This document shows positions 11,058 through 48,730 of a stretch of DNA of 64,000 bases, piece by piece. The notes under the pieces are model-generated. The model ran no database searches. It was not told the origin of the DNA and was given only the letters and a program-made list of their open reading frames with translations. Source of the stretch: Roseivivax sp. GX 12232 (GTDB taxonomy: Bacteria > Pseudomonadota > Alphaproteobacteria > Rhodobacterales > Rhodobacteraceae); the NCBI RefSeq assembly GCF_021272185.1, contig NZ_JAJSEC010000010.1, positions 1 through 64,000 on the forward strand. The letters are read 5' to 3'. The first letter of the stretch is position 1; each line of letters opens with the position of its first letter. Both the position numbers and the translations under genes were made by a program.

Positions 11058-11224
11058 CAGAGGGCGCGCGCCGGACCGGGGGCCGGCGCTGCCGACCTCT
11101 GAGCTGCGCGCTTTATCCCAGCAAGGTCATTGCTCACTGTGAGCTAGGCACGCCACCCCAAGGAGCGCCGGCCCATCGGGCCGGTCCGGCGCGCGCCCGG
11201 CACCTTCGGTGCTATTCGGGCGCA
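11058..11224 (+). repeat. Dispersed structured repeat R1, copy A
   Basis: First of seven copies of a roughly 168-bp intergenic element. It starts CAGAGGGCGCGCGCCGGACC and ends TTCGGTGCTATTCGGGCGCA. The ends are complementary, and the middle contains the conserved CGCTTTATCCCAGCAAGGTC. This copy lies inside the spc ribosomal cluster, between the rpmD terminator and the rplO promoter. It has no coding potential of its own; short open frames through it are by-products of GC-rich sequence. Confidence 0.85.
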
Positions 11225-11339
11225 TGCTGGTCGCGGTTGAGCAGCGTGTGGAGAGAGGCCAGAGGGAAGGGGGCCGGCGCGCGTCGCTCTGAATGACCCG
11301 CATGGCTCCGGCCGACCCGATTGTCGCGCGACCACGTCG

Positions 11340-11456
11340 CACCAAGCGCCACCCGCGCCCAGCACCACCGCCCCAAACCCCGCGCCCGCACACCCCCGTC
11401 ACCCCACCCCGCCACAACGTCACCGGGAATTCTGCCGCCCATCCCCGCGCCTGCCC
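11340..11456 (+). other. C-rich, G-poor tract before the rplO promoter
   Basis: About 115 bases strongly biased to C with few G, for example CACCACCGCCCCAAACCCCG. Such tracts are the usual form of Rho-loading sites in RNA. If functional, it would stop readthrough transcripts ahead of the rplO promoter at 11457. The role is inferred from composition only. Confidence 0.35.
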
Positions 11457-11485
11457 TTGAACCGCCTGCCCACCCCGTCTATACG
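11457..11485 (+). promoter_or_regulatory. Predicted promoter for rplO-secY-adk
   Basis: TTGAAC (11457-11462), 17-bp spacer, TATACG (11480-11485), 96 bases before rplO. It has the same -10 hexamer and spacing as the rpmC and rpsU promoters in this window. Confidence 0.65.
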
Positions 11486-11581
11486 CCCCCGGTGATCTCT
11501 GAGGATCACACCGACCACATCTGAAAACGCCGCGTTTGGCCCATCCGTCGCTGGGGGCCACATCCGGCAAGGAGAAGCGAC

Positions 11582-12049
11582 ATGAAACTCAACGAACTGC
11601 GCGACAACGAAGGCGCCAACCGCCGCAAGAAGCGTATCGGCCGCGGCCCGGGCTCGGGCGTCGGCAAGATGGGCGGCCGCGGCATCAAGGGCCAGAAGTC
11701 TCGTTCGGGCGTGGCCATCAACGGCTACGAGGGCGGCCAGATGCCGCTCTACCAGCGCCTGCCGAAGCGCGGCTTCAACAAGCCCAACCGCAAGACCTTC
11801 GCCGTCGTGAACCTCGGCATCATCCAGAAGTTCATCGAGGCCGGCAAGCTCGACGCGGGCAAGCCGATCGACGAGGACGCTCTGGTCGCCTCCGGCGTCG
11901 TGCGCCGCAAGCTCGACGGCATCCGCGTGCTCGCCAAGGGCGACATCTCGTCCAAGGTCTCGCTGACCGTCACCGGCGCCTCGAAGTCGGCTGTCGCCGC
12001 GGTCGAGAAGGCCGGCGGTTCGATCACCACGGCTCAGGCGGCCGAATAA
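11582..12049 (+). CDS. rplO: 50S ribosomal protein L15
   Basis: L15 (uL15) is a late-assembly 50S protein. The 155-residue product begins [20 protein letters not shown] and has the glycine-rich [20 protein letters not shown] segment (about 20-39). AAGGAGAAG precedes the ATG. It starts the second half of the spc cluster behind its own promoter, instead of following rpmD directly. A hairpin follows before secY. Confidence 0.96.
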
Positions 12050-12096
12050 AGGTTGTGGGCGGCCCGCGCGCCGCTTACATCCGTTAGCAGTTTCCG

Positions 12097-12134
12097 ACGC
12101 CGCCTCAGCCCCTCAAGGCTCGGGGCGGCGTTTG
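12097..12134 (+). terminator. Attenuator-like hairpin between rplO and secY
   Basis: Eight-bp stem (ACGCCGCC at 12097-12104, GGCGGCGT at 12124-12131) with an inner AGCC/GGCT pairing and a short T-run (TTT) after it. Since secY needs to be transcribed from upstream, this is more likely an attenuator or processing hairpin than a full stop. Confidence 0.4.
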
Positions 12135-12155
12135 ACCGAATAGAGAGACCGCTTC

Positions 12156-13516
<1,361 letters not shown>

Positions 13517-13520
<4 letters not shown>

Positions 13521-14173
13521 ACATCATTCTTCTCGGACCGCCGGGTGCCGGCAAAGGCACCCAGGCCCGCCACCTCGTCGATGGCCGTGGCATGACCCAG
13601 CTCTCGACCGGCGACATGCTGCGCGAAGCCAAGGACTCGGGCACCGAGATGGGCCAGGTCGTGGCCGATGTGATGGCCAAGGGCGAGCTGGTGACCGACG
13701 AGATCGTGATCGGCCTGATCCGCGAGAAGCTGCAGGGCGAGAAGACCGCGGGCTTCATCTTCGACGGCTTCCCGCGCACGCTCGCCCAGGCCGATGCGCT
13801 TGGCGCGCTCCTGGCCGAGCAGGGCGAGAGCCTCGATGCGGTGATCGAGATGCGCGTCGACGACGAGGCGCTGGTCGAGCGCATCACCGCGCGGTCGACC
13901 TGCGGCAACTGCGGCGAGGTCTACAACGACAAGACCAAGCCGATCCCGGCCGATGGCGTCTGCTCGAACTGCGGCGAGAAGGCCGAGTTCAAGCGCCGCG
14001 CCGACGACAACGCCGAGAGCCTCAAGCAGCGGCTGATGGAATACTACAAGAAGACCTCGCCGCTCCTGGGCTACTACTACGCCAAGGGCCAGCTCGAGCG
14101 GGTCGACGGTCTGGGCGACATCTCCGAGGTGCAATCGGCAATCGCCGGCGTGCTTGACGCCACGGCATCTTGA
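13517..14173 (+). CDS. adk: Adenylate kinase, zinc-lid type
   Basis: Catalyses ATP + AMP = 2 ADP in the cytosol. The 218-residue product has the P-loop GPPGAGKGT at residues 7-15, FDGFPRT near residue 80 and a long lid containing four cysteines (129, 132, 149 and 152, as CGNC and CSNC), which indicates a structural zinc site as in Gram-positive enzymes. It overlaps secY by 4 bases and is followed by a hairpin terminator. Confidence 0.97.
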
Positions 14174-14256
14174 ACAATTTCTGCGGATGCACAGTTATCG
14201 CCTTGGAATGAGCGACCGCGCATTCCCTTCGTAAGGCACAGCCAAAGACGGTTTCT

Positions 14257-14293
14257 GAAAGGCGTCCGGTCCCCCTCCCGGGCGCCTTTCTCG
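14257..14293 (+). terminator. Hairpin terminator after adk
   Basis: Thirteen-bp stem with one G-T wobble (GAAAGGCGTCCGG at 14257-14269, CCGGGCGCCTTTC at 14278-14290). The T-rich end of the stem is followed only by TCG, so termination may be incomplete. Confidence 0.6.
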
Positions 14294-14439
14294 TAAGCGC
14301 CCGCGGGCGCACCGAAGCGCATCGCAGCGGGAGCGGGGCAGGGGCCTTGCCGGCGCAGGCACCGCGCCCCATATCCTTGGCCAAGGCCGCACCCCGCCCG
14401 CGATCTTCGCGGGTCGGCGGCGGGGCTCCGCCTGAGGGC

Positions 14440-14468
14440 TTGACCCCCCGGTCAAATCACACTACCCA
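14440..14468 (+). promoter_or_regulatory. Candidate promoter for rpsM-rpsK-rpoA-rplQ
   Basis: TTGACC (14440-14445), 17-bp spacer, TACCCA (14463-14468), 160 bases before rpsM. The -35 is good; the -10 keeps only the first two consensus bases. The -35 is also one arm of the small inverted repeat TTGACC/GGTCAA. The rest of the 454-base gap 14174-14627 shows only the adk terminator and no gene. Confidence 0.4.
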
Positions 14469-14627
14469 CCGGCATCTCCGAAAGGGGAATCGCCTTTTGC
14501 GGCGTGTTTTCCGACCGCCGCAAGACCACCTGATCGACAATTGGCCCGCGGGCGTCGCCGCCCAAGGGCCTTGTGTTGTGAAAAAAGGTTCTGGAGCTAC
14601 GGAACCGCAACTAGAGGACATAGAGAC

Positions 14628-14996
14628 TTGGCACGTATTGCCGGCGTCAACATCCCGACGAACAAACGGGTGCCCATCGCACTCACCTACATCCACGGCA
14701 TCGGCCCGAACTCCGCCCAGGAGATCTGCCAGGCCGTCAACATCGACGCGACCCGTCGCGTGAACGAGCTGAGCGACGCCGAAGTCGTCGCCATGCGCGA
14801 GCACATCGACGCGAACTACACCGTCGAGGGCGACCTGCGCCGTGAGGTTCAGATCAACGTCAAGCGCCTGATGGACCTCGGCTGCTACCGCGGCCTGCGC
14901 CATCGTCGCAACCTCCCCGTGCGCGGTCAGCGCACCCACACCAATGCCCGCACCCGCAAGGGCCCGGCCAAGCCGATCGCTGGCAAGAAGAAGTAA
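14628..14996 (+). CDS. rpsM: 30S ribosomal protein S13 (TTG start)
   Basis: S13 (uS13) contacts tRNA and the 50S subunit from the 30S head. The frame has no ATG near the family N-terminus; the conserved [20 protein letters not shown] is preceded by a TTG at 14628, and AGAGGA at 14613-14618 lies 9 bases before it. This gives the standard 122 residues, so TTG is taken as start. The C-terminus [20 protein letters not shown] is conserved. It heads the alpha cluster. Confidence 0.93.
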
Positions 14997-15011
14997 GGGA
15001 GGCTCGCAACA

Positions 15012-15404
15012 ATGGCACGTGATACCCGTCGCGGAGGCAAGAAGAAGGTCTCCAAGAACATTGCAGCTGGCGTCGCCCATGTGAATTCCAGCTTCAACAA
15101 CACCAAGGTCCTGATCTCGGACGTGCAAGGCAACGCGATCTCCTGGTCGTCCGCCGGCACCATGGGCTTCAAGGGCTCGCGCAAGTCGACGCCCTATGCC
15201 GCGCAGCTCGCGGCCGAGGACGCCGGCAAGAAGGCGCAGGAGCACGGCGTCAAGACCCTCGAGGTCGAGGTGCAGGGCCCCGGTTCGGGCCGCGAATCCG
15301 CGCTGCGCGCGCTCGCCGCTGTCGGCTTCAACATCACGTCGATCCGCGACGTGACGCCGATCGCGCACAACGGCTGCCGCCCGCCCAAGCGTCGCCGCGT
15401 CTGA
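15012..15404 (+). CDS. rpsK: 30S ribosomal protein S11
   Basis: S11 (uS11) lines the mRNA exit on the 30S platform. The 130-residue product has [20 protein letters not shown] near residue 16 and the highly conserved [11 protein letters not shown]-terminus. GGGAGG lies before the ATG. A strong hairpin follows in the short gap to rpoA. Confidence 0.97.
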
Positions 15405-15420
15405 TACGGACGTTTTCTTG

Positions 15421-15451
15421 TCCGGGGCCCGGCATTTGTCCGGGCCCCGGA
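15421..15451 (+). other. Perfect hairpin between rpsK and rpoA
   Basis: Twelve-bp perfect stem (TCCGGGGCCCGG at 15421-15432, CCGGGCCCCGGA at 15440-15451) with a 7-base loop and no T-run. It may set the ratio of rpoA to ribosomal transcripts by attenuation or RNA processing. Confidence 0.5.
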
Positions 15452-15522
15452 CCTCGCGTTTCTTAACCTCGGGCGTCTCGAGCCTTCCGGACATGGGGTC
15501 GAGACAGGAATGGAGGTCATAC

Positions 15523-16539
15523 ATGATCCACAAGAATTGGGCAGAGCTCATCAAGCCGACCCAGCTTGATGTTCGTCCCGGCAACGAACCGGCCAAATCC
15601 GCGACCCTGGTCGCCGAACCGCTCGAGCGCGGCTTCGGCCTGACGCTCGGCAACGCGCTGCGCCGGGTTCTCCTGTCGTCGCTGCAGGGCGCGGCGATCA
15701 CCTCGGTGCAGATCGACAACGTGCTGCACGAGTTTTCCTCGGTCGACGGCGTCCGCGAGGATGTGACCGACATCGTCCTGAACCTCAAGGCCGTCTCGCT
15801 GAAGATGGAAGTTGAAGGGCCGAAGCGGCTGTCGATTTCGAAAAAGGGCCCCGGCGTCGTCACCGCCGGCGACATCTCGGAATCGAACGGCATCGAGGTC
15901 CTGAACAAGGACCACGTGATCTGCCACCTGGACGAGGGCGCCGAGCTCTACATGGAGCTCACCGTCAACCAGGGCAAAGGTTACGTCTCGGCCGACAAGA
16001 ACAAGCCCGAGGATGCGCCCATCGGCCTGATGCCGATCGACGCGATCTATTCCCCGGTCAAGAAGGTCGCCTATGACGTGCAGCCCACCCGCGAGGGCCA
16101 GGTGCTGGACTACGACAAGCTGACCATGAAGATCGAGACCGACGGTTCCGTCAGCCCCGAGGACGCCATCGCCTTCGCGGCGCGCATCCTGCAGGACCAG
16201 CTGTCGATCTTCGTCAACTTCGACGAGCCGGAAAGCGCCCAGCGTCAGGACGACGACGACGGCCTCGAGTTCAACCCGCTTCTGCTGAAGAAGGTCGACG
16301 AGCTCGAACTGTCGGTGCGTTCGGCCAACTGCCTGAAGAACGACAACATCGTCTATATCGGCGACCTGATCCAGAAGACCGAAGCCGAGATGCTGCGCAC
16401 TCCGAACTTCGGCCGCAAGTCGCTGAACGAGATCAAGGAAGTGCTCTCGGGCATGGGCCTGCATCTCGGCATGGACGTCGAGGACTGGCCGCCGGACAAC
16501 ATCGAGGATCTCTCGAAGAAGATGGAAGACCAGTTCTGA
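15523..16539 (+). CDS. rpoA: RNA polymerase alpha subunit
   Basis: The alpha dimer nucleates RNA polymerase assembly and its C-terminal domain contacts UP elements and activators. The 338-residue product has the N-terminal domain signature [20 protein letters not shown] (about 32-51) and the C-terminal domain motif [20 protein letters not shown] near residue 290. The frame is open upstream, but the family N-terminus [15 protein letters not shown] and TGGAGG at 15511-15516 fix ATG 15523. Confidence 0.97.
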
Positions 16540-16661
16540 GACATGCCCGTCCGGGTGGCCCACCCGCCCGGACGCCGCATCGGGTCCCATGACCCCAAGG
16601 AGAGCGGCCTCACCACGCATGGGCCGCCGGACAAAGCAAAACGAACCTAGGAGACACGACA

Positions 16662-17087
16662 ATGCGTCACGCAAAAGGCTACCGCCGCCTCAACCGCACC
16701 CATGAGCACCGCAAGGCGCTCTGGGCCAACATGGCCGGCTCGCTGATCGAGCACGAGCAGATCAAGACGACCCTGCCGAAGGCCAAGGAACTGCGCCCGA
16801 TCGTCGAGAAGCTGATCACGCTCGGCAAGCGCGGCGATCTGCACGCCCGCCGCCAGGCCGCAGCCCAGCTCAAGCAGGATGCCCACGTCGAGAAGCTTTT
16901 CGAAGTGCTGGGCCCCCGGTACGCCGAGCGCCAGGGCGGCTACATCCGCGTCCTGAAGGCCGGCTTCCGCTATGGCGACATGGCGCCCATGGCCATCATC
17001 GAGCTCGTGGACCGCGATCCCGAGGCGAAAGGCGCGGGCGACAAGGCCCGTCTCGAGGCCGAAGAGGCCTTCGCCGACGAGGAGTGA
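16662..17087 (+). CDS. rplQ: 50S ribosomal protein L17
   Basis: L17 (bL17) is a bacteria-specific 50S protein. The 141-residue product has the conserved [20 protein letters not shown] start and [20 protein letters not shown], with an acidic C-terminal extension ([10 protein letters not shown]). A hairpin (16548-16574) lies in the 122-base gap from rpoA. It is the last gene of the alpha cluster and has a strong terminator. Confidence 0.97.
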
Positions 17088-17125
17088 TCCCCGGGGCGCG
17101 CGTCCCGCGCCCGACCGATCTTCCT

Positions 17126-17162
17126 GGCCCCGCCGGTTCCGCCGGCGGGGCCTTTTCTTTTC
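17126..17162 (+). terminator. Rho-independent terminator after rplQ
   Basis: Perfect 11-bp stem (GGCCCCGCCGG at 17126-17136, CCGGCGGGGCC at 17142-17152), 5-base loop, then TTTTCTTTTCC. Confidence 0.9.
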
Positions 17163-17271
17163 CGGCCCTTTTCCGCGCCCCGCATGGCCCCTCGCGGGCC
17201 TCCGCACTGGCAGCGGCGCGCGGAATGCCTATCTGTCCCCGGCGAGGACGCAACGAAAGGACAGGCCCCCC

Positions 17272-17862
17272 GTGCAGCGCACGCACAGCATCGAGGATGT
17301 CTTCGACCGGATCGAGGCGGCCACCGGCGACGGGCGGCTGACCCTGGGCGAGGCGGTGGACGCGCTTGGCGGGCGCGGCTACGGGCCCTTCCTCTTCCTG
17401 CCCGCGCTCCTGGAGATCACGCCTTTCGGCGGCATCCCCGGCGTTCCGACGCTGCTGGCGCTGCTGATCAGCCTTTTCGCGGTGCAGGTCGCCCTTGGCC
17501 GCGACCGGATCTGGGCGCCCGCCGTGCTGCGCGCCCGCTCGGTCGAGGGGGAGCGCCTGCACCAGGCCATCGAGATGCTGCGCCCCGCCGGCCAACGCGT
17601 CGAGCGCTGGTTCCCCGGCCGCCTGCCGATGCTGGTGCGCGGCCCGGTGCGGCGGCTCGCGGCGCTGGTGGTGGTGACACTCTGCCTGACCGTGCCGGCA
17701 CTGGAGCTGGTGCCCTTCGCCAGCACCGCGCCGATGGCGGCGATCGCGATGATCGGCCTGGCGCTGACCCTGCGCGACGGGCTCCTCATGGCGCTGGGGT
17801 TCGCGCTCTCGGCGGGCGCGGTCGGGGTGATCGTCTGGGCGCTCCTGAGGCTGCCGATCTGA
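17272..17862 (+). CDS. ExoD-family membrane protein
   Basis: Member of the exopolysaccharide-synthesis ExoD family (PF06055), inner-membrane proteins first noted in Rhizobium for exopolysaccharide and alkali tolerance; the molecular function is unknown. The 196-residue product has a short soluble N-terminus, the family stretch GPFLFLPALLEITPFGGIPG (about 42-61) and further hydrophobic segments in the C-terminal half. GTG 17272, 10 bases after AAGGA, is chosen because no ATG fits. It appears to be a single gene after the rplQ terminator. Confidence 0.78.
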   Translation: MQRTHSIEDVFDRIEAATGDGRLTLGEAVDALGGRGYGPFLFLPALLEITPFGGIPGVPTLLALLISLFAVQVALGRDRIWAPAVLRARSVEGERLHQAIEMLRPAGQRVERWFPGRLPMLVRGPVRRLAALVVVTLCLTVPALELVPFASTAPMAAIAMIGLALTLRDGLLMALGFALSAGAVGVIVWALLRLPI

Positions 17863-18004
17863 GCCACGCGCCGTGCCCCTTGCCCGCGCGCTTGCAAAGC
17901 CCGCGGGCGGGCGACATATCTCGGCCCATGACCTGTTTCCGGCCCTTGCCCAGCGCCGCCGCCGCCCCTCCGCGCCCCCGCGCCGCGCGAGAGGCGCGCC
18001 GCTG

Positions 18005-19354: not shown

Positions 19355-19486
19355 CCGCGCGCCGCGCCGCCGCCCACAGCCAGAAACACCCGCCCAACAA
19401 AAAGCGCGCCCCGCAAAGCGCGCCTTCCACAGTCACCACCCGCAGCCCACCCGCCGGGCCCAAAGCGCGCCGCCCCCCTGCCTTCA

Positions 19487-33427: not shown

Positions 33428-33490
33428 TTTTTTGGGGGCGTTTGGGGCTGGGGGCGCTTGCGGTTCCGGCTTTGGGCGCCTGTTGCGCGG

Positions 33491-33549
33491 GCGAGGGGGC
33501 TGTCTGCCCCCTCGCGCTCCCCCGAGAGGTATTTAAGGCCCGGTCATGC
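33491..33549 (+). repeat. Short palindromic repeat R2, copy 2
   Basis: Ten-bp stem (GCGAGGGGGC at 33491-33500, GCCCCCTCGC at 33506-33515), 5-base loop, then GCTCCCCCGAGAGGTATTTA. It shares its parts and order with copy 1 at 19487-19530. It lies just after mscL. From 33550 to 33714 nothing else is recognisable. Confidence 0.6.
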
Positions 33550-33714
33550 AGGCGAGGCGGGGCGCGGGGTGGTGAGCGTTGTGGGTTGGATTTGGGGGTG
33601 TGTGACGGCAGCATCGGAGGGCGGCGCTTTGGGCCTTGCGTGCGTGCGGCACCGAGGGCGGTTCCGCCAGCGTCGACGGTTGATCAGCGCCGAAGGTCGC
33701 TCATTTGGCGCTTT

Positions 33715-33883
33715 CTTGCGCCCGAATAGCATCGAAGATGCCGGGCGCGCGCCGGACCGGCCCCTTGGGCCGGCGCTCCTTGGGATGGCGCGCTTAGCTT
33801 ACCTCTAGCCCTGACCTTGCCGGGATAAAGCGCGTAGCCCGGCGGTCAGCAGCGCCGGCCCCCGGCCCGGCGCGCGCCCTCTG
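33715..33883 (-). repeat. Dispersed structured repeat R1, copy B
   Basis: Full-length R1 in reverse orientation between the convergent mscL and ald genes. Its terminal hairpin differs from the other copies by a compensated pair: GCATC/GATGC (33729-33741) in place of GCACC/GGTGC. This supports selection for the hairpin. A 48-bp tandem repeat begins 24 bases after it. Confidence 0.85.
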
Positions 33884-37918: not shown

Positions 37919-38087
37919 CAGAGGGCGCGCACCGGACCGGGGGCCGGCGCTGCTGCCTTTTGAGCGAAGCGCTTTATCCCAACAAGGTCAGGGCTAGAGG
38001 TCAGCTACGCACGCCGCCCCAAGGAGCGCCGGCCCAAGGGGCCGGTCCGGCGCGCGCCCGGCACCTTCGGTGCTATTCGGGCGCAAG
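37919..38087 (+). repeat. Dispersed structured repeat R1, copy C
   Basis: Full-length copy between the BCCT transporter and the GMC oxidoreductase. It has one unpaired change in the left arm (GGGCGCGCACCGG). Just after it, at about 38120-38148, the end module GGCACCTTCGGTGCT occurs again on its own, followed by a diverged TTGGGGCAAAG. Confidence 0.85.
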
Positions 38088-38308
38088 GAGGCGCGTGGGA
38101 AGGCTGAGGGCGGGCTTGGCACCTTCGGTGCTGATTGGGGCAAAGGGGGTGGAGCGCGCATCAGTAGGCGTGGGTGCGGCAGAGAGGTGGTGGCAGCGAA
38201 GGCGGGGCACCTTCGCTCATCGGGTAGCGCAGAGGCCCGGAGTGCGTGTGGGCGGTGCTAGACGGTGTTCCGCTCTCTGGTCCGTTCTCAACCGTTCACT
38301 CGGGACGA

Positions 38309-38456: not shown

Positions 38457-38468
38457 AGGAGGACCGGC

Positions 38469-40304: not shown

Positions 40305-40348
40305 CATCTATGACCGGGCCGAGGCCCGATCGTGTCCGAAAGGCTGCC

Positions 40349-40555
40349 TCAGAGCAGACCTTCGCGCTGCGCCTTCTTGCGCGCCAGCTTGCGCGCACGG
40401 CGGATCGCTTCGGCCTTCTCGCGGGCTTTCTTCTCGGAGGGTTTCTCGAAATGCTGCCGAAGCTTCATCTCGCGGAACACCCCTTCACGCTGGAGCTTTT
40501 TCTTCAGCGCACGAAGAGCCTGGTCGACGTTGTTGTCGCGAACACTCACCTGCAT
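40349..40555 (-). CDS. rpsU: 30S ribosomal protein S21
   Basis: S21 (bS21) binds near the anti-Shine-Dalgarno end of 16S rRNA and affects initiation. The 68-residue, very basic product [20 protein letters not shown] has the alphaproteobacterial length. It stands alone on the minus strand with its own promoter and terminator, away from rpoD and dnaG, and is convergent with the GMC gene. Confidence 0.96.
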
Positions 40556-40608
40556 GTGGTTGTCACCACCTTTCTAGGTTGAAGTTACAAGGAATTGCAG
40601 GAGGTGGC

Positions 40609-40637
40609 CGTATAGCAAAGGGATGCTAGCTTGTCTA
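40609..40637 (-). promoter_or_regulatory. Predicted promoter for rpsU
   Basis: Minus-strand TAGACA (40632-40637), 17-bp spacer, TATACG (40609-40614), 54 bases before the rpsU ATG. The -10 is identical to those of rpmC and rplO. Confidence 0.6.
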
Positions 40638-40680
40638 GGGTGCCGCTGACCCGGAAATTCCACCGGAAAGGATGCCTCTC

Positions 40681-41355: not shown

Positions 41356-41596
41356 GAGGGGGTTGGGGGCTTGAGCGGTTAGAAGCCTCTCTAGGCCCCT
41401 GCCAACAGCGCTCCAAGCTGAGCAGCAGGGGTCTGTGCCCCTGCTGCCCGCGCTCCAAGAGAAGCTGTAGAGAAAGGTGGCCTCGAGCGTTCTGAACGCT
41501 CCGCCACAACCCGCGCTGCCTTGTCGGCCTGGAGGACCCAGAATGGGCCAGTCGCCATCACGAATGAAAACCACCGCACCCCATTCCGCGCCCCTC
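41356..41596. other. Non-coding stretch between COQ9 and R1 copy D
   Basis: About 240 bases with no gene. Complementary GAGAGG and CCTCTC segments shortly after the COQ9 stop could form a loose hairpin without a clear T-run. Nothing else is recognised. Confidence 0.4.
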
Positions 41597-41765
41597 CTTG
41601 CGCCCGAATAGCACCGAAGGTGCCGGGCGCGCGCCGGACCGGCCCGATGGGCCGGCGCTCCTTGGGATGGCGTGCCTAGCTCTCAGTGAGCAATGACCTT
41701 GCTGCCATAAAGCGCATAGCTCGAAGCTCGGCAGCGCCGGCCCCCGGTCCGGCGCGCGCCCTCTG
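41597..41765 (-). repeat. Dispersed structured repeat R1, copy D
   Basis: Full-length reverse copy between COQ9 and the first quinone oxidoreductase. The hairpin loop variant is GGCCCGATGGGCC, as in copies A and F, whereas B, C, E and G carry GGCCCCTTGGGCC (or its complement). Confidence 0.85.
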
Positions 41766-42043
41766 TTGAGACGTGTGGGCTGGGGCGGCGCGTCCCCCGG
41801 GAAAGAGGCGGACCGCACCACCTACCTGCGGTGAGAGACGTGCTCGATGCCGGGACAGGCTGGGCAGGGGGGCGTCCGTCTCCCGCGAACGACAAAACAG
41901 CCCCGCACTCCTTCCCATCCCCTCCGCCAACACCCACACCCCCTCAACCCCGCCCCCTCCCCGCAAACCGAGTTGCCACTCCCGCCGCGAGCAGCCAGTC
42001 TCCCGCCAACGTCACCAAGGGTCCAAGGCAAGGGAGACAGGAC
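41766..42043 (+). other. Non-coding stretch with C-rich tract after R1 copy D
   Basis: No gene is recognised. From about 41900 to 41985 the plus strand is C-rich and G-poor, similar to the tracts before rplO and before the GMC gene. The 42044 gene follows with AAGGGAGACAGG as ribosome-binding region. Confidence 0.4.
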
Positions 42044-43030
42044 ATGGCCGAGATGATGCGCGCGGTGGAGATATCCCAGAGCGGCGGGCCGGAGGTGCTC
42101 ACCCCGATCACCCGCGCGCGGCCCGAGCCCGGCCACGGCCAGGTGCTGATCAAGGTCGCTTATGCCGGGGTGAACCGCCCCGACGCGCTGCAGCGGGCGG
42201 GCAATTACACCCCGCCGCCGGATGCCTCGGACCTGCCGGGCCTGGAAGCCTCGGGCGAGGTCGTGGCGCTTGGCCCCGGCGCCGAGGGCGTGGCGCTCGG
42301 CGACCAGGTCTGCGCGCTCCTGCCCGGGGGCGGCTATGCCGAGTATGTCGTCACCCCGGCGGCGCATTGCCTGCCGGTGCCCAAGGGCCTCTCGCTCAAG
42401 GAGGCCGCCTGCCTGCCCGAGACCTATTTCACCGTTTGGTCCAACGTCTTCATGCGCGGCGGGCTCACGGGCGGCGAGCGCATCCTGATCCACGGCGGCT
42501 CCTCGGGGATCGGCACCACCGCGATCCAGCTGGCGCGGAACGCCGGGGCCCGGGTCTTCGCCACCGCCGGCTCGGCGGAGAAATGTGCCGCCTGCGAGAA
42601 GCTCGGCGCCGAACGCGCGATCAACTACCGCGAGAAGGACTTCGTCGAGATCCTGCGCGCCGAGGGCGGCGCCGACTTGATCCTCGACATGGTGGGCGGC
42701 GATTACATCCCGCGCAACATCAAGGCGCTGGCCGACGACGGGCGGCTGGTGCAGATCGCCTTTCTCTCGAGCCCCAAGGTCGAGATGAACTTCGCCCCCC
42801 TCATGGTGCGGCGGCTGACCTTCACCGGCTCGACCCTGCGCCCGCAGTCGGTCGCCGCCAAGGCCCGCATCGCCGAGGAGCTGCGGACCCATGTCTGGCC
42901 GCTGCTCGACGCCGGCACCGTCGGGCCGATCATGGATTCGGAGTTCCCGCTCGAGGAGGCGCGGGCCGCCCACGAGCGCATGGAGGGCTCGACCCATATC
43001 GGCAAGATCGTCCTCAAGGTCGCAGACTGA
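42044..43030 (+). CDS. NAD(P)H quinone oxidoreductase, PIG3-like
   Basis: Zinc-free medium-chain reductase of the quinone-oxidoreductase type, 328 residues. The N-terminal MRAVEISQSGGPEVLTPITR and NRPDALQRAGNYTPPPDAS match the PIG3-like branch. The nucleotide-binding motif is HGGSSGIGTTAIQLARNAGA (about 150-169). Electron acceptor and substrate are unknown. One base separates it from a methyltransferase gene, and a second quinone-oxidoreductase gene follows that. Confidence 0.87.
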   Translation: MAEMMRAVEISQSGGPEVLTPITRARPEPGHGQVLIKVAYAGVNRPDALQRAGNYTPPPDASDLPGLEASGEVVALGPGAEGVALGDQVCALLPGGGYAEYVVTPAAHCLPVPKGLSLKEAACLPETYFTVWSNVFMRGGLTGGERILIHGGSSGIGTTAIQLARNAGARVFATAGSAEKCAACEKLGAERAINYREKDFVEILRAEGGADLILDMVGGDYIPRNIKALADDGRLVQIAFLSSPKVEMNFAPLMVRRLTFTGSTLRPQSVAAKARIAEELRTHVWPLLDAGTVGPIMDSEFPLEEARAAHERMEGSTHIGKIVLKVAD

Positions 43031-43031
43031 G

Positions 43032-43721
43032 ATGAGCGAGGAGGCGGGCCGGAAAAGCCCGCTCGACCATCTCTACGACTGGTCGGTGCGGGACAGTTTC
43101 GAGACCTTCCGCGAGGCGATGTCGGGGGCGATGCTCTTCCCCGACAAGCGCCAGATCCGCCGCTATTGCCTGGCCCGCGCGCTGGCGGGCCCCGCCGCGG
43201 CGGGGCTGATCGCCGAGTTCGGCGTCTGGCGCGGGCATGGCGTGAACCTTTTTGCAAAGGGGGCGCCCGACCGCGAGGTCTGGGGCTTCGACAGCTTCGA
43301 GGGGCTCGAGGAGGACTGGACCGGCCATGCCAAGGGCGGACAGGCCGGGCGCTTCTCGTTGCAGGGCGCGCTGCCCGAGGTCTCGGACAACGTGCATCTG
43401 GTGAAAGGCTGGGTGCAGGACACCCTGCCGGACTGGCTGGCCGCGCGGCCCGGGACGGCGCTGGCCTTCGCGCATATGGACCTCGACACCTACAGCCCCA
43501 CCCGCTTCGTGCTGGAGGCGCTGGCGCCGCGGCTTGTGCCCGGCAGCGTCCTGCTGTTTGACGAGCTCTACGGCTACCCCGGCTGGCGCCACCACGAATG
43601 GCGCGCGCTCTCCGAGGTGCTGGCCCCGGAGCGCTACCGGTTCCTCGCATTCTCGACCGAGGCGGTGGGGATCGAGATCATTTCCGACACCCAAGGAGGA
43701 GCACCATGGCCAAGACCATGA
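43032..43721 (+). CDS. TylF/macrocin O-methyltransferase-like class I methyltransferase
   Basis: The 229-residue protein resembles the macrocin O-methyltransferase family (PF05711). The SAM-binding motif is EFGVWRGHGVNLFA (about 69-82), followed by WGFDSFEGLEEDW, and the metal-binding acidic motif HMDLDTYSPTRFVLEAL with LLFDELYGYPGWRHHEW. The target is unknown. It starts one base after the upstream quinone reductase and its end overlaps the next one by 16 bases, so the three genes form a tight operon. Confidence 0.75.
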   Translation: MSEEAGRKSPLDHLYDWSVRDSFETFREAMSGAMLFPDKRQIRRYCLARALAGPAAAGLIAEFGVWRGHGVNLFAKGAPDREVWGFDSFEGLEEDWTGHAKGGQAGRFSLQGALPEVSDNVHLVKGWVQDTLPDWLAARPGTALAFAHMDLDTYSPTRFVLEALAPRLVPGSVLLFDELYGYPGWRHHEWRALSEVLAPERYRFLAFSTEAVGIEIISDTQGGAPWPRP

Positions 43722-44680
43722 TCATCGAGGACCACGGCGGTCCGGAGGTCTTCAAATCCGTCGACCGCGAGGTCGGCGCGCCCGGCCCGGGCGAGATCCG
43801 CATCCGCCACGAGGCGGTGGGGCTGAACTTCATCGACGTCTACCAGCGGACGGGGCTCTACAAGATGGAGCTGCCGCATGCGCTGGGCATGGAGGCCGCC
43901 GGCGTGATCGAGGCCGTGGGCGAGGGCGTCACCCACCTCAAGGAGGGCGACCGCGCCGCCTATGCCGCCGCGCCGCCGGGCGCCTATGCCGAGGCCCGCG
44001 TCATGCCCGCCGCCCAGGTCTGCCCGCTGCCCGAGGGCATCTCCTTCGAGGAAGGCGCCGCGATGATGCTCAAGGGGCTGACGGTGCAGTATCTCTTCCA
44101 CCGCACCACGCCGATTGCGAAGGGCGACACGGTGCTGTTCCACGCCGCCGCCGGCGGGGTCGGGCTGATCGCCTGCCAATGGGCGAAGTCCGAAGGCATC
44201 CGCCTGATCGGCACCGCCGGGTCGGACGAGAAATGCGCCCTGGCCGAGGAACATGGCGCCGAGCGCTGCCTGAACTACCGCGACGCGGATTGGCCCGAGC
44301 AGGTCCGTGCCCTGACCGAGGGCAAGGGCGTGCATGTGGTCATGGACGCCGTGGGCGCGGCCACCTTCGAGGGCTCGCTCTCGGTCCTGCGACCGCTGGG
44401 GATGATGATCTCCTTCGGCAATGCCTCGGGCCCGGTGCCGCCCTTCAGCATCGCCGACCTGGGCGCCAAGGGCTCGCTGAAGATCACCCGGCCGACGCTG
44501 TTTACCCATATCGCCGAGCACGAGACCTGCCAGGAGATGGCGGCGATGCTCTTCGAGAAGGTGCGCTCGGGCGCGGTGAAGATCCGCATCGACCAGCGCT
44601 TCGGCCTGGAGGAGGTCGCCGAGGCCCACCGGACGCTCGAGGCGCGGAAGACGACCGGCAGCACGGTGCTGGTGGTGTGA
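43706..44680 (+). CDS. Quinone oxidoreductase, QOR type
   Basis: Classical NADPH:quinone reductase of the medium-chain family, 324 residues without zinc ligands. The N-terminus MAKTMIIEDHGGPEVFKSVD and NFIDVYQRTGLYKMELPHAL are QOR-like. The nucleotide-binding site is HAAAGGVGLIACQWAKSEGI (about 148-167). AAGGAGG within the end of the methyltransferase gene precedes ATG 43706. It is a distant paralogue of the gene at 42044. Confidence 0.9.
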   Translation: MAKTMIIEDHGGPEVFKSVDREVGAPGPGEIRIRHEAVGLNFIDVYQRTGLYKMELPHALGMEAAGVIEAVGEGVTHLKEGDRAAYAAAPPGAYAEARVMPAAQVCPLPEGISFEEGAAMMLKGLTVQYLFHRTTPIAKGDTVLFHAAAGGVGLIACQWAKSEGIRLIGTAGSDEKCALAEEHGAERCLNYRDADWPEQVRALTEGKGVHVVMDAVGAATFEGSLSVLRPLGMMISFGNASGPVPPFSIADLGAKGSLKITRPTLFTHIAEHETCQEMAAMLFEKVRSGAVKIRIDQRFGLEEVAEAHRTLEARKTTGSTVLVV

Positions 44681-44749
44681 GGGGCTGAGGGGCAGGGGCT
44701 CGCCGGTGGATGGCTGGCCCCCGGCCTTTGGCGTTGTCGGGCCCTCTTT

Positions 44750-44918
44750 CTTGCGCCCGAACAGCACCGAAGGTGCCGGGCGCGCGCCGGACCGGCCCCT
44801 TGGGCCGGCGCTTGTTGGGGTGGCGCGCTTAGATCGCCGCTAGCCCTGACCTTGCGTGGATTAAGCGCTTCGCTCGGAGCTCAGCAGCGCCGCCCCCCGG
44901 TCCGGCACGCGCCCTCCG
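44750..44918 (-). repeat. Dispersed structured repeat R1, copy E
   Basis: Reverse copy, the most diverged of the seven (CTTGTTGGGGTGGCG, GTGGATTAAGCGC). It lies between the convergent QOR and purD genes, 292 bases (start to start) from copy F in the same orientation. Confidence 0.85.
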
Positions 44919-45041
44919 TTGCGCGGGGGTGAGGGGGCGTAAGGCGCGGCGTGGACGCTTGTGTGCCGCTCGCAATATGAGCGCGCATGGCAAACCGAAC
45001 GCCCCTAGCTCCCCGACATCCCGAACAGCCCAGAGCCGCCT

Positions 45042-45207
45042 CTTGCGCCCGAATAGCACCGAAGGTGCCGGGCGCGCGCCGGACCGGCCCGATGGGCCGG
45101 CGCTCCGTGGGATGGCGCGCTTAGGTCGCCCCTAGCCCTGACCTTGCCAGGATAAAGCGCCTCGCTCGGAGTTCAGCAGCGCCGACCCCCGGTCCGGCGC
45201 GCGCCCA
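45042..45207 (-). repeat. Dispersed structured repeat R1, copy F
   Basis: Second reverse copy in the QOR-purD gap, ending 18 bases before the purD stop. Its outer end reads GCGCGCCCAGC and lacks the CCCTCTG of other copies. The 123 bases between E and F (44919-45041) show no gene. Confidence 0.83.
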
Positions 45208-45225
45208 GCACCTTGCGCGCAGCAC

Positions 45226-46491
45226 CTACCCCAGCGCGCGCCAGCCGATGTCGCGGCGGCAGAAGCCCTCGGGCCAGTCGACCGCGTCGACCAGCGCATA
45301 AGCCCGGTCGCGGGCCTCGCCGAGGCTCGCGCCCCGGGCGGTGGCGTTCAGAACCCGACCGCCGCTGGCCACCACCGCGCCCTCGCGGGTGGCGGTGCCG
45401 GCGTGGAAGGTCATGTGGAAGCTGTCCTCGGGTAGATCGCCCAGCCCGCGGATCACGCTGCCTTTCTCGTAGGCGCCGGGATAGCCCTCGGCGGCCATGA
45501 CCACGGTCATCGCGTGGTCCTCGGCCCAGCTCACCCGGGCCTCGCCGAGCCGGCCTTCGGCGCAGGCGTGGATCAGGTCGAGCGCCTGGGCCCCGAGCCG
45601 CATCATCAGCGCCTGGCACTCGGGGTCGCCGAAGCGGACGTTGTATTCCACCAGCCGCGGCGCGCCGTCCTCGATCATCAGACCGGCGTAGAGCACCCCC
45701 TGGTAGGGCGTGCCGCGGCGGGCCATCTCGGCGATCGTGGGCTTCACGATCTCGTCGAGCGCGCGGGCCGTGACGGTCGCGTCCATGATCGGCGCGGGGC
45801 TATAGGCGCCCATGCCGCCGGTGTTGGGGCCGGTGTCGCCTTCGCCCACGCGCTTGTGGTCCTGGGCGGTGCCCACGGCCAGCACGTCCCTGCCGTCGCA
45901 GAGCACGAAGAAGGAGGCCTCCTCGCCGGTCATGAACTCCTCGATCACCACCTCGGCGCCGGCCGCGCCGAAGGCGCCGCCGAACATCTCCGCGATCGCG
46001 GCCTCGGCCTCCGCCAGGCTTTCGGCGATGATCACGCCCTTGCCCGCGGCCAGCCCGTCGGCCTTGATCACCACCGGGAAGGGGCCCTGGCGCACATGCG
46101 CGAGCGCCGCGGCCTCCTCGGTGAAATGCGCGTAAGCCGCGGTCGGCGCGCCCGAGGCGTCGCAGAGCTCCTTGGTGAAGGCCTTGGAGGCCTCGAGCCG
46201 GGCGGCCTCGCGGCTTGGGCCGAAGACCAGGATACCGGCGTCGCGCAGGGTGTCGGCCACGCCCGCGGCCAGCGGCGCCTCGGGACCGATGATCACCAGG
46301 TCGATGGCGTTCTCGCCGGCGAACTCGGCCACCGCGCCGCCGTCCTCGATGTCGAGCGCCGCGCAGGTGGCGATCTCGGCGATGCCGGCATTGCCCGGCG
46401 CCACGATCAGCTTGTCGCACTTGGGGTTCTGCATCGCCGCCCAGGCCAGGGCATGTTCGCGCCCGCCGCCGCCGAGGATGAGGATGTTCAT
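45226..46491 (-). CDS. purD: Phosphoribosylamine--glycine ligase
   Basis: Second step of de novo purine synthesis: phosphoribosylamine + glycine + ATP to GAR. The 421-residue protein begins MNILILGGGGREHALAW and shows the ATP-grasp regions PVVIKADGLAAGKGVIIAES (about 134-153) and YNVRFGDPECQALMMRL. The frame stays open for another 500 codons upstream across xseA, but the family N-terminus sets the start at 46491. It is divergent from xseA with a 159-base gap. Confidence 0.96.
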   Translation of the reverse strand: MNILILGGGGREHALAWAAMQNPKCDKLIVAPGNAGIAEIATCAALDIEDGGAVAEFAGENAIDLVIIGPEAPLAAGVADTLRDAGILVFGPSREAARLEASKAFTKELCDASGAPTAAYAHFTEEAAALAHVRQGPFPVVIKADGLAAGKGVIIAESLAEAEAAIAEMFGGAFGAAGAEVVIEEFMTGEEASFFVLCDGRDVLAVGTAQDHKRVGEGDTGPNTGGMGAYSPAPIMDATVTARALDEIVKPTIAEMARRGTPYQGVLYAGLMIEDGAPRLVEYNVRFGDPECQALMMRLGAQALDLIHACAEGRLGEARVSWAEDHAMTVVMAAEGYPGAYEKGSVIRGLGDLPEDSFHMTFHAGTATREGAVVASGGRVLNATARGASLGEARDRAYALVDAVDWPEGFCRRDIGWRALG

Positions 46492-46650
46492 GGCCCGCTC
46501 TCCGTCTCGCCCGTCCCTTGCTGGCCTGCCTCGTAGCCGCGTGGCCCCCGCCGCACAAGCCTTGGCCCGGCGAAAGCCCGCGCGGGCCCGGTTTTCCCCG
46601 CTGCGAAGCGGCGCTAGTGTCGGGCAAGCAAGACAAGCGGCAGGGCAGGC

Positions 46651-48228
46651 ATGAGCGACCTCATCGACGACGGCGAAAGCGGCAACACCCCGGAGTTCAC
46701 CGTCTCCGAGATTTCCGGCGCGGTGAAGCGCACCATCGAGGGCGAGTTCGGCCATGTCCGCATCAAGGGCGAGGTCGGCCGGGTCTCGCGGCCGCGTTCG
46801 GGCCATGTCTACCTGGACCTGAAGGACGACCGCGCGGTGATCTCGGGGGTGATGTGGAAAGGCGTCGCCGCGCGCCAGGACACCCAGCCCGAAGAGGGCA
46901 TGGAGGTCGTCGCCACCGGCCGGCTGACCACCTTCCCGGGGCAGTCGAAATACCAGATCGTGATAGAGGACATCCGCCCCGCCGGCATGGGCGCGCTCAT
47001 GGCGATGCTGGAGAAGCGCCGCAAGGCGCTGGCCGCCGAGGGGCTTTTCGACGAGGGCCGCAAGAAGCCGCGGCCTTTCCTGCCCGAGATCATCGGCGTG
47101 GTGACCTCGCCTTCGGGGGCGGTGATCCGCGACATCCTGCACCGGCTGCGCGAGCGTTTCCCCCGCAAGGTGCTGATCTGGCCGGTGGCGGTGCAGGGCC
47201 AGGCCTCGGCCCCCGAGGTCGCCCGCGCGATCCGCGGCTTCAACGCGTTGACCCCCGGCGGCGCGCTGCCCCGGCCCGACCTGCTGATCGTGGCGCGCGG
47301 CGGTGGCTCGATCGAGGATCTCTGGGGCTTCAACGAGGAGATCGTGGTGCGCGCGGCGGCCGAGTCGCAGATCCCGCTGATCTCGGCGGTGGGCCATGAG
47401 ACCGACACCACGCTGATCGATTTCGCCGCCGACCTTCGCGCGCCGACGCCCACCGCCGCCGCCGAGCTGGCGGTGCCGGTCCGGCGCGACCTCCTGGCCT
47501 GGAGCGGCGAGATGCAGGCGCGCATGGGCCGGGCGGTCTCGCAGCGGCTCGAGCATCGCGGCCAGCGGCTGGGTGACCTGGCCCGCGCGCTGCCCCGGGC
47601 CGAGACGCTCCTGGAAAGCGCCCGCCAGCGGCTCGACACCAGCGGCGAGCGGCTGCCCGCGGCGCTGATCCGGGGGGTGCAGAGCCGCCGGGTGACGCTG
47701 TCCGAGACCGCCGGGAGCCTGCGCCCGGGCATGTTGCGCGCGCGCACCGCCGAGGGGCGCCGCGCGCTCGAGGTCTGGGGCGCGCGGCTCGCGCCGGCGC
47801 TCGGGCGGCTGACCGAGACCCGGGCCCAGGCCCTGGGCCGTGTCGGCGACCGCCTGAGCCTGCGCCCGATCCAGCGCGAGGTCTCCGAGCACCGCCGCAG
47901 CCTCGAGGCGCTGGCGCTGCGCCTCGACCAGGGCGCCGAGGCGCGGCTGCGCGCGGGCCGCGAGGGGCTCGCGGGTCTCGACCGGCTGCACGAGACACTG
48001 GGCTACAAGGCGACGCTCGAGCGCGGCTACGCGGTGGTGCGGGGCGCGGGCGGCGTGCTGACCACCCGCGCCGAGGCCGAGGCCGCGGGCGGGCTGGAGA
48101 TCGAGTTCAAGGACGGCCGGTTGAAGATCGGCGGCGGTGCCGGGGCCGGTGGCGGCGGGGCCGGTGGGGCTGCGAAGAAGAGCGAGACGCGGAAGAAGAG
48201 CGCGCCGGAGCAGGGGTCGTTGTTCTGA
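46651..48228 (+). CDS. xseA: Exodeoxyribonuclease VII large subunit
   Basis: Single-strand-specific exonuclease, catalytic subunit acting with XseB. The 525-residue protein has the N-terminal OB fold (about 14-110, with [20 protein letters not shown]), then the catalytic domain with [33 protein letters not shown] and [20 protein letters not shown], a long coiled-coil segment and an unusual Gly/Ala/Lys-rich tail (last 40 residues). AGGGCAGGC precedes the ATG. xseB is not in the window. Confidence 0.95.
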
Positions 48229-48562
48229 AAGACGGGGTGGGCTTGGGTGGCTGGCGGCTTGTTAGTCCGTCAGGCGGTGCCGCTGGATTCGGAGTGGCGT
48301 GAGACGCGAGCGTTCAGGCTCTAGGCTGCCGAATGGTGATGCCGGGGGACGTGCAGCATTCGTGGCCGTCCGCGGGACATCAGACCGCTCATGGCAGCTT
48401 CCGACAGGTGAGCCGGGCGCGCGACGATCGATGGGCAAAGCTGGCGGTCGAATAGCAGCGCCGACCTGCGTGCGCTGCTTCTGACCGCCAAGCCGCGCTG
48501 CTGCCCGTCTGTCGGCGCCCCCTCACAACCCACACCCCTGACCAACATCGCAACAGGCACAC
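48229..48562. other. Non-coding stretch between xseA and R1 copy G
   Basis: No gene, terminator or promoter was recognised. The last 50 bases (48513-48562) are C-rich and G-poor, as beside other R1 copies. Confidence 0.4.
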
Positions 48563-48730
48563 CAGAGGGCGCGCGCCGGACCGGGGGCCGGCGCTGCTGA
48601 CCGTCGTGCTAAGCGCTTTATCCCAGCAAGGTCAGGACGAGCTGCGAGCTAAACGCGCCGCCCCAAGGAGCGCCGGCCCAAGGGGCCGGTCCGGCGCGCG
48701 CCCGGCACCTTCGGTGCTATTCGGGCGCAA
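48563..48730 (+). repeat. Dispersed structured repeat R1, copy G
   Basis: Forward copy between the convergent xseA and fadB genes and a good reference for the fold: outer arms 48567-48584 and 48686-48703 (18 bp, perfect), inner arms CCGGCGCT (48588-48595) and AGCGCCGG (48669-48676), terminal hairpin GCACC-TTC-GGTGC (48705-48717) enclosed by CGCCCG/CGGGCG. Confidence 0.87.

What the first reader, a model, noticed from the sequence alone, without database searches (positions are those of the whole stretch)
11058..48730. Seven-copy structured intergenic repeat (R1, about 168 bp) in both orientations
Copies at 11058-11224 (+), 33715-33883 (-), 37919-38087 (+), 41597-41765 (-), 44750-44918 (-), 45042-45207 (-) and 48563-48730 (+). 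All lie between genes. Each has 18-bp complementary outer arms, 8-bp inner arms, a conserved block CGCTTTATCCCAGCAAGGTC and a terminal hairpin. Length is almost constant (166-169). No transposase or obvious target duplication is seen. It could be a non-autonomous mobile element, a REP-like element or a family of structured RNAs. The density, one per 5-6 kb in 33-49 kb, is high.
Basis: partly seen in the sequence, partly recalled or inferred. Interest (0 to 1): 0.85.

Follow-up and report, generated by a model that had tools for sequence, protein, structure and literature searches.

The report
Structured intergenic repeat family of Rhodobacteraceae
The seven repeats are copies of a 165-letter folded element, of which we found no earlier description, that sits between genes in about half of the sampled genera of one bacterial family, exists in hundreds of copies in this genome, and looks as if its copies swap pieces and turn around in place.

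Summary
In detail: seven homologous ~167-bp copies, all intergenic. They belong to a family with hundreds of copies in this 4.1-Mb genome (233-244 terminal hairpins; 67 full copies in 864 kb). A covariance model finds the same fold in 155 of 295 one-per-genus genomes of the window's family (Rhodobacteraceae, GTDB sense); in a 240-genome class sample the only two hits are the own genome and one family member. Anatomy: a long palindromic stem, a loop with CTTTATSCCNGCCA, and a 3' hairpin. Twenty of 29 stem pairs show two-sided changes. The ends are direct repeats (about GCCGGGC), both complementary to one middle strand; all three covary. No Rfam match above threshold; no Y1 transposase and no reverse transcriptase in this genome. 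Copies favour 3' ends of genes. Two surprises: 63 copies of this genome are in linkage equilibrium beyond ~25 nt; and between two Alloyangia genomes 10 of 20 shared sites carry the element in opposite orientation, mostly with an unrelated loop. Best reading: a new family of ERIC/YPAL-like structured intergenic repeats, amplified long ago and now turned over in place by ectopic conversion seeded at the palindromic arms (mechanism inferred). Transcription untested; ten literature searches found no description.

The parts
11058..11224 (+). R1 copy 1
   Evidence: 142.3 bits
33717..33883 (-). R1 copy 2
   Evidence: 131.7 bits
37919..38085 (+). R1 copy 3
   Evidence: 134.9 bits
37923..37940 (+). copy 3: 5' arm of stem A (18 nt)
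   Evidence: positions; pairs counted
37944..37951 (+). copy 3: 5' arm of stem B (inner arm, CCGGCGCT)
   Evidence: positions
37970..37989 (+). copy 3: conserved loop block CGCTTTATCCCAACAAGGTC (family core CTTTATSCCNGCCA)
38025..38032 (+). copy 3: 3' arm of stem B (AGCGCCGG)
38042..38059 (+). copy 3: 3' arm of stem A; its last bases are also the 5' foot of hairpin C
38056..38082 (+). copy 3: 3' terminal hairpin C including its foot
41599..41765 (-). R1 copy 4
   Evidence: 140.1 bits
44752..44918 (-). R1 copy 5 (tandem pair with copy 6, same orientation)
   Evidence: (123.8 bits)
45044..45210 (-). R1 copy 6; congener G006 has an element in the same intergenic region and orientation
   Evidence: (134.2 bits)
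48563..48729 (+). R1 copy 7; congener G002 has a weak (46 bits), decayed element in the same intergenic region, opposite orientation
   Evidence: (137 bits)

Best explanation
R1 is this genome's version of an apparently undescribed family of ~165-nt non-coding intergenic repeats confined, as far as sampled, to Rhodobacteraceae (GTDB sense). The conserved unit is one strand that folds into a long hairpin (stem A plus stem B, about 26 bp, with an ~80-nt loop carrying CTTTATSCCNGCCA) followed by a short hairpin C; the foot of stem A and the foot of hairpin C compete for the same middle strand (shown by covariation). It was amplified to very different copy numbers in different lineages (shown). 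How it first spreads is unknown. Once in place, copies stay at the same intergenic site over species divergence (shown in one species pair). I infer that the palindromic arms, by breaking or stalling replication, trigger repair from other copies, so that loops are shuffled (linkage equilibrium: shown; gene conversion as its cause: inferred), elements are replaced, often in the opposite orientation (orientation difference: shown; replacement: inferred), are duplicated in tandem, and decay by deletions that leave hairpin-C or end remnants (remnants seen). Its place is at 3' ends of genes, where it is least harmful and may act on mRNA ends like ERIC or YPAL (inferred).
For: Copy number and control. 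Distribution: CM in 155 of 295 one-per-genus genomes of the family, own included; in a class sample of 240 genomes the only 2 hits are the own genome and one of the same family; a pattern scan of the species-genome collection gave 72 loci, 71 with titles of Rhodobacterales as I know them (six genus names looked up, five of them among these loci, all Rhodobacterales), 1 titled only 'Proteobacteria'. Structure: 20 of 29 pairs with two-sided changes, 188 cells against 53.6 +/- 5.3 in shuffles, 9-30 when slid; hairpin C with foot 57 cells against 16.8; middle column 160 covaries with both 9 (z 14.5) and 191 (z 13.0). Strand bias: 46 G.T against 12 A.C cells, 78:18 and 132:45 in two further sets. 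Placement: 0 of 67 copies in genes; 28 convergent (13.6 expected by intergenic length), 5 divergent (13.0 expected). Tandem neighbours under 400 bp: 13 of 13 same orientation, farther ones 26 of 50. Shuffling: 63 copies, r2 0.019-0.020 beyond 25 nt (independence 0.018-0.019), four-gamete fraction 1.00; two simulated trees r2 0.20-0.27, fraction 0.35-0.55. In-place turnover: 20 shared Alloyangia sites, 10 same / 10 flipped; of the 8 + 8 compared, same-orientation loops lie above background (p 2e-6), flipped loops barely (p 0.03); remnants.
Against: No mobilising enzyme was found and no clean insertion with target duplication was seen. Linkage equilibrium could also come from recurrent mutation between few tolerated bases (22 of 31 sites are transitions); the simulated trees were not matched in identity (0.81-0.83 against 0.86). 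Gene conversion does not by itself explain why flips include hairpin C and why immediate flanks of flipped pairs are often unalignable. A flip excess over independent same-orientation replacements (10 against 0-2, my reading) is only p 0.002-0.04. The turnover data come from one pair of Alloyangia genomes; in the window's genus only two shared sites were seen (one same, one flipped). Counted by pair columns the G.T bias is weak (12:6 and 28:25). Tandem co-orientation with genes (44 against 25, p 0.03) and the G.T bias leave room for an RNA function. In G006 the inverted arms run on into a hairpin-C-like sequence at the 5' end, so there the ends are closer to inverted repeats.
Confidence: 0.57

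Rival explanations
1. A functional structured RNA family (3'-UTR element or small RNA) kept by selection on each copy; amplification made many regulated 3' ends.
For: Strong covariation and near-constant length (37 of 45 elements 164-168 nt as cut); conserved unpaired motif; G.T over A.C mismatches on the folding strand; upstream gene co-oriented in 44 of 69 tandem contexts; three-strand competition resembles an RNA switch.
Against: Copy number swings from hundreds here to 0-4 found in seven congeners (capped); orientation at shared sites is 10 same / 10 flipped; loops of shared-site elements can be no more alike than those of unrelated copies; flanking genes are diverse: the largest protein cluster near 72 loci, from 16 loci, is ABC ATPases, the next two, 5 loci each, are a gyrase-B-like and a phenylalanyl-tRNA synthetase gene; several elements lie just beyond a terminator-like hairpin (by eye). 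Transcription untested.
Confidence: 0.22
2. A classical MITE-type transposon remnant moved by a DDE or other transposase that recognises its inverted arms.
For: Unequal amplification between lineages; inverted arms of 18 + 8 nt; small non-coding size; in G006 the arms extend further towards the ends.
Against: In the family the inverted arms are not the ends: hairpin C lies outside them and the ends are direct repeats. No target duplication at the Alloyangia sites examined. Wobble bias is strand-specific, not expected for a double-stranded binding site. The four cluster representatives annotated near 72 loci are household or transporter genes; other transposase families were not searched genome-wide.
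Confidence: 0.13
3. A REP/REPIN-type element mobilised by a Y1 (RAYT) transposase, with hairpin C as the REP.
For: Hairpin C occurs alone and in a tandem array of ~72-bp period; imperfect hairpin with a conserved one-sided bulge.
Against: No Y1_Tnp in this genome (5 of 14 control genomes ring); over 295 genomes Y1 and R1 are not associated (17 of 30 with Y1 against 138 of 265 without; p 0.70); by eye no GTAG or CGTC tag at the hairpin ends, the defining tags in PMC3733652.
Confidence: 0.03
4. A bacterial SINE-like retro-element: the RNA is copied by a reverse transcriptase, template switching makes mosaics, 5'-truncated copies keep the 3' end.
For: All six partial copies found in 464 kb keep only the 3' end, though three of them are one tandem array; free shuffling of short blocks; weak association with RVT_1 (51 of 81 against 104 of 214; p 0.036, not corrected for kinship).
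Against: This copy-rich genome has no RVT_1 match at all; 3'-only pieces also follow from deletion of the long hairpin; no target duplication seen.
Confidence: 0.05

Closest known systems
YPAL / RU-2 (Yersinia palindromic sequence, ~168 bp; PMC2229807, section 11 read)
   Same: Length, not A+T-rich, inverted repeats internal rather than terminal, intergenic, abundant, targets next to dyads (several R1 copies follow a terminator-like hairpin), possible effect on upstream transcripts.
   Different: YPAL makes 3-26 bp target duplications and has recent empty/filled sites; none was seen for R1. Hosts differ. R1 has a second hairpin, competing feet, and shuffled loops. Sequence homology to YPAL was not tested.
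ERIC / IRU / RU-1 (127 bp; PMC2229807, passages read)
   Same: Small palindromic non-coding intergenic repeat of a bacterial family, able to fold as RNA.
   Different: The review lists TIR, target duplication and TA termini for ERIC; R1 has direct-repeat ends and is about 72% G+C.
CGTC-tagged REPs of alphaproteobacteria (PMC3733652, passages read)
   Same: Palindromic repeats common in alphaproteobacteria that seem to lack a dedicated transposase.
   Different: 20-40 bp, tetranucleotide tag, CCA tail; R1 is ~165 nt with a conserved loop and no tag. CGTC-containing hairpin repeats appear inserted inside some R1 copies (by eye).
Rfam 15 families
   Same: Structured, covarying element.
   Different: No match at gathering score in the window. 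At relaxed E-value the only match overlapping a copy is IS1222_FSE over part of copy 4, 22.5 bits against a threshold of 45; in five other loci a sub-threshold ar35 match (27.7 against 45) lies beside, not on, an element.
HRC-8-4 motif of Rhodobacterales (PMC8632094, section 22 read)
   Same: Structured motif confined to Rhodobacterales.
   Different: Terminator-like hairpin mostly between the cco operons; not an interspersed repeat.

Membership tests
REP / REPIN (RAYT-associated) | Y1 (RAYT) transposase in the genome | tested here: not met
   PF01797: 0 matches in own genome; no association over 295 genomes
REP / REPIN (RAYT-associated) | 20-40 bp palindrome tagged GTAG or CGTC at one end | tested here: not met
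   unit is about 165 nt; read by eye, no tag at the hairpin ends in the 39-copy alignment; definition
MITE | terminal inverted repeats | tested here: not met
   ends are direct repeats of about GCCGGGC; inverted arms are internal to hairpin C; exception in part: G006 copies, whose 5' end resembles an inverted hairpin C
MITE | target site duplication | tested here: inconclusive
   none seen at examined Alloyangia sites, but none of these is a proven fresh insertion
MITE | ends shared with an autonomous transposon | tested here: inconclusive
   the three largest protein clusters near 72 loci are ABC ATPases, gyrase-B-like and PheT-like genes; smaller clusters not annotated; not searched genome-wide
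ERIC / YPAL-like structured intergenic repeats | many copies, intergenic, palindromic, non-coding | tested here: met
ERIC / YPAL-like structured intergenic repeats | sequence homology to ERIC or YPAL | not tested
   no reference copy was at hand
Structured RNA family | compensatory changes in stems | tested here: met
   20 of 29 pairs, 0 of 500 shuffles as high
Structured RNA family | is transcribed as a defined RNA | not testable with these tools
   no expression data
Known Rfam family | match at gathering score | tested here: not met
Phage or plasmid borne element | present on phage, viral contigs or plasmids | tested here: inconclusive
   none in phages by blastn with the window copy, none in viral contigs with two exact patterns; none in plasmids with the window copy but 6 of 72,556 plasmid records with an Alloyangia copy (Salipiger 4, Pacificitalea 1, Pseudosulfitobacter 1)

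The most novel reading that the evidence does not exclude
R1 copies form a freely recombining 'population' inside one genome: a non-coding repeat whose palindromic arms and terminal direct repeats make it a self-targeting substrate for repair, so that loops are exchanged in tracts of roughly 10-25 nt and whole elements are overwritten in place, commonly in inverted orientation. It would be a repeat that persists by conversion of old sites rather than by new insertion, with a three-strand alternative fold as its conserved core.
Probability: 0.3. Interest if true: 0.85.

Novelty: new variant of a known kind. Interest (0 to 1): 0.65.

Why it matters
It is a structured element in about half of the sampled genera of Rhodobacteraceae (GTDB sense), and it was found neither in Rfam 15 nor in ten full-text searches of open-licence papers. 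It reaches roughly one copy per 13-18 kb in this genome. The three-strand covariation gives a sharp, testable structural core. If the linkage equilibrium and the 50:50 orientation at shared sites are confirmed in close strains, R1 becomes a tractable system for an open question: how small non-coding repeats without a visible transposase persist and stay alike in bacterial genomes.

Tried and rejected
Rfam scans at gathering and relaxed thresholds: nothing above threshold on a copy. BLAST of the window copy against plasmids and phages: nothing. RAYT: rejected. Reverse transcriptase: absent from this genome. tRNA genes in the window: none. A first HMM was built from seeds in mixed orientation because the element is palindromic; it was discarded and rebuilt from 39 oriented copies. 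An inversion of the element together with its flanks as the cause of the flips was tested and not supported: where flanks of flipped pairs align, they do so in the flank frame, not in the element frame (8 pairs, which then stopped with an error; loop part redone). Extra helices inside the apical loop were sought by mutual information; none is well supported. The near-identical first and third elements of Roseovarius nubinhibens looked like fresh transposition, but a divergent element lies between them, so conversion fits as well. My gene caller is home-made; near 45-48 kb it gave a plus-strand gene and a minus-strand gene, the latter agreeing with a stretch conserved in congeners. Selection effects: 73 elements were found by a loop motif plus stem-B bases, 45 could be cut out automatically and 36 of these are in the 64-row alignment A3, so motif and stem-B invariance there is partly by choice; of the 20 places fetched because of hairpin C alone (one more was not fetched) 13 hold TTTAT in the expected stretch. 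Rows dropped: for, 4 of 67 own copies as divergent; for A3, truncated or insert-bearing elements and one window copy, 4 of 20 shared-site pairs (2 same, 2 flipped) with short or truncated elements; in the Alloyangia comparison, weak CM hits (mostly under about 55 bits) were not fetched. Family searches with the model scored at most 9 candidates per genome, so copy numbers there are floors. DDE transposases and other recombinases were not surveyed.
Full report
OBSERVATION. The seven copies are real and correctly placed. They align over ~167 nt nearly without gaps. The terminal hairpin, with up to three mismatches, occurs 112 + 121 times in the own genome and 0 times when the pattern is reversed; a slightly different pattern gives 115 + 129. 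With a covariance model, 67 full-length copies lie in 864 kb of the own genome, about one per 13 kb; the stretch 33-49 kb of the window is denser than that.

FAMILY. BLAST with one copy found matches in 14 of 61 genomes, own included, most of them partial. Reading them showed the same anatomy with different arms. A gapped pattern scanned over the species-genome collection gave 72 loci; 71 carry titles of Rhodobacterales as I know them, 1 is titled only Proteobacteria. A 64-row alignment gave a covariance model. It finds the element at E <= 1e-5 in 155 of 295 one-per-genus genomes of the window's family, own included (142 of 260 of high quality), although at most nine candidates per genome were scored. 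In a class-wide sample of 240 genomes only the own genome and one family member match. Two exact patterns gave nothing in viral contigs.

ANATOMY. From the 5' end: AGCCGGGC; stem A; a short internal loop; stem B; an apical loop of about 80 nt with CTTTATSCCNGCCA; the returning arms; hairpin C; and a final CCGGGC or TTCGGGC. As cut, 37 of 45 elements are 164-168 nt. Of 29 named pairs 20 have two-sided changes, 94.7% of cells pair, and 188 cells carry two-sided changes against 53.6 in shuffles and 9-30 when the partner is slid. Hairpin C with its foot has 57 such cells against 16.8. By mutual information the middle strand covaries both with the 5' foot of stem A (columns 9-160, z 14.5, paired 1.00) and with the 3' foot of hairpin C (160-191, z 13.0, paired 0.96). 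The two pairings exclude each other, and in some elements hairpin C keeps a compensated foot where the stem-A foot is lost (by eye: L163, L185, L197). In G006 the 5' end itself resembles an inverted hairpin C, so the inverted arms are longer there. G.T mismatches outnumber A.C mismatches in the stems, 46:12 in the family alignment, 78:18 in this genome and 132:45 in Alloyangia (by distinct pair columns only 12:6 and 28:25), which suggests that one given strand folds.

PLACEMENT. None of 67 own copies lies in a called gene; 28 are convergent (13.6 expected from intergenic length), 5 divergent (13.0 expected), 19 and 13 tandem with and against the genes, 2 at an edge. Median length of intergenic regions with R1 is 712 against 77 overall. 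None of 72 named loci lies in a called gene; there 25 are tandem with and 12 against the genes, 16 convergent, 5 divergent, 14 at an edge. Neighbouring copies less than 400 bp apart agree in orientation in 13 of 13 cases, more distant neighbours in 26 of 50, and several such pairs share upstream flanks above background: I read these as local tandem duplications.

SHUFFLING. In 63 own copies, 31 sites have a minor allele of at least 15%. r2 is 0.197 at 1-3 nt, 0.083 at 4-9, 0.031 at 10-24 and 0.019-0.020 beyond, where independence predicts 0.018-0.019; beyond 25 nt the fraction of site pairs with all four combinations is 1.00 as printed. Two simulated non-recombining families gave r2 0.20-0.27 and fractions 0.35-0.55 at those distances; they were somewhat more diverged (mean identity 0.81 and 0.83 against 0.86). 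No two copies are more than 94.8% identical over the element, so there is no sign of recent copying. The decay with distance speaks for short-tract recombination, but recurrent mutation between few tolerated bases is not excluded (22 of 31 sites are transitions; 11 have a third allele of at least 5%). KcN7-14 copies show the same low linkage with smaller numbers (n = 32).

TURNOVER IN PLACE. Alloyangia pacifica DSM 26894 and KcN7-14 were compared because both carry many copies. Of 23 elements of the first and 47 of the second that were fetched (some truncated), 20 pairs share both flanks (identity 85-96%). Ten pairs have the same orientation, ten the opposite. Of the 16 pairs complete enough to compare, the 8 same-orientation pairs have loops more alike than background (p 2e-6), although in 3 of the 8 a paralogue of the same genome is as close or closer for at least one member; the 8 flipped pairs barely differ from background (p 0.03; one of the 8 clearly above it). 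Immediate flanks of flipped pairs are often unalignable for some tens of bases while sequence farther out is conserved. Of 27 elements seen only in KcN7-14, flanks were matched in stretches of the other genome for 13 (12 on both sides): these show what I read as a 5'-end remnant (L258), a solo hairpin C (L271), hairpin-C remnants in the opposite orientation (L284, L295), an internal deletion (L309), a site with a single GCCGGGC (L288), or other DNA. In the window's own genus the same two outcomes appear once each: G006 has an element in the copy 5/6 region in the same orientation, G002 a decayed one (46 bits) in the copy 7 region in the opposite orientation.

ENZYMES. Y1 transposases: none in this genome, no association in 295 genomes. 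Reverse transcriptase domain: none in this genome; weak association elsewhere (51 of 81 against 104 of 214, p 0.036), uncorrected for shared ancestry. DDE transposases and other recombinases were not surveyed. The three largest protein clusters near 72 loci are ABC ATPases, a gyrase-B-like and a PheT-like gene.

LITERATURE. Ten full-text searches of open-licence papers found no description. Of the papers listed I saw passages of four, PMC2229807 (ERIC, YPAL), PMC3733652 (tagged REPs), PMC2864571 and PMC8632094 (structured RNA surveys), and one whole section each of PMC2229807 and PMC8632094. Subscription papers are mostly not in that library.

VERDICT. Shown: a family-wide structured repeat, its fold, its three-strand covariation, its placement, its copy number, the linkage equilibrium, and the 10:10 orientation at shared sites of one species pair. 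Inferred: conversion seeded at the palindromic arms. Unknown: how it first spreads and whether it is transcribed.

Noticed in passing
L053:10690-10905 (own genome C1 about 90.7 kb): Three hairpin-C-only copies in a head-to-tail array with ~72-bp period directly after a full R1 copy.
   Followed up: partly
L107:118-273 and 448-603 (own genome C12 about 160 kb): A divergent R1 subfamily pair (73 and 58 bits) with a shorter 3' hairpin and arms CGCGCCCGACCC / GGGTCGGGCGCG.
   Followed up: no
L188:878-1413 (Roseovarius nubinhibens): Three R1 elements head to tail; first and third nearly identical, middle one divergent.
   Followed up: partly
L274, L288, L293, L309 (Alloyangia), also L141, L165, L171, L173, L190, L200: Other short palindromic repeats (CGTCGTCCATCG... 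and GCGCCATTGG... types) sit inside R1, by eye in the internal loop between stem B and stem A.
   Followed up: no
L145, L147, L172, L203, L209 and L153, L160, L180, L184, L191: Five loci each have R1 near the same gene (gyrase-B-like; PheT-like by Pfam for one representative), hinting that some sites are shared across genera.
   Followed up: partly
window 33487-33566: A 70-80 bp stretch outside called genes is 89-90% identical in two congeners, above the 85% of the gene before it; no tRNA, no Rfam hit at threshold.
   Followed up: no
window 2444-2551: Rfam L2-Alphaproteobacteria ribosomal protein leader (RF03142, 45.9 bits).
   Followed up: no
window 38118-38141: A degenerate solitary hairpin C (GGCACCTTCGGTGCTGATTGGGGC) just downstream of copy 3.
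   Followed up: no
own genome copies, both sides: In this genome R1 is preceded by a pyrimidine-rich leader (about CCCTCTCAACNCGCCCCACCAGA) and followed by a purine-rich AAGRRGG in most copies; not obvious in other genera.
   Followed up: partly
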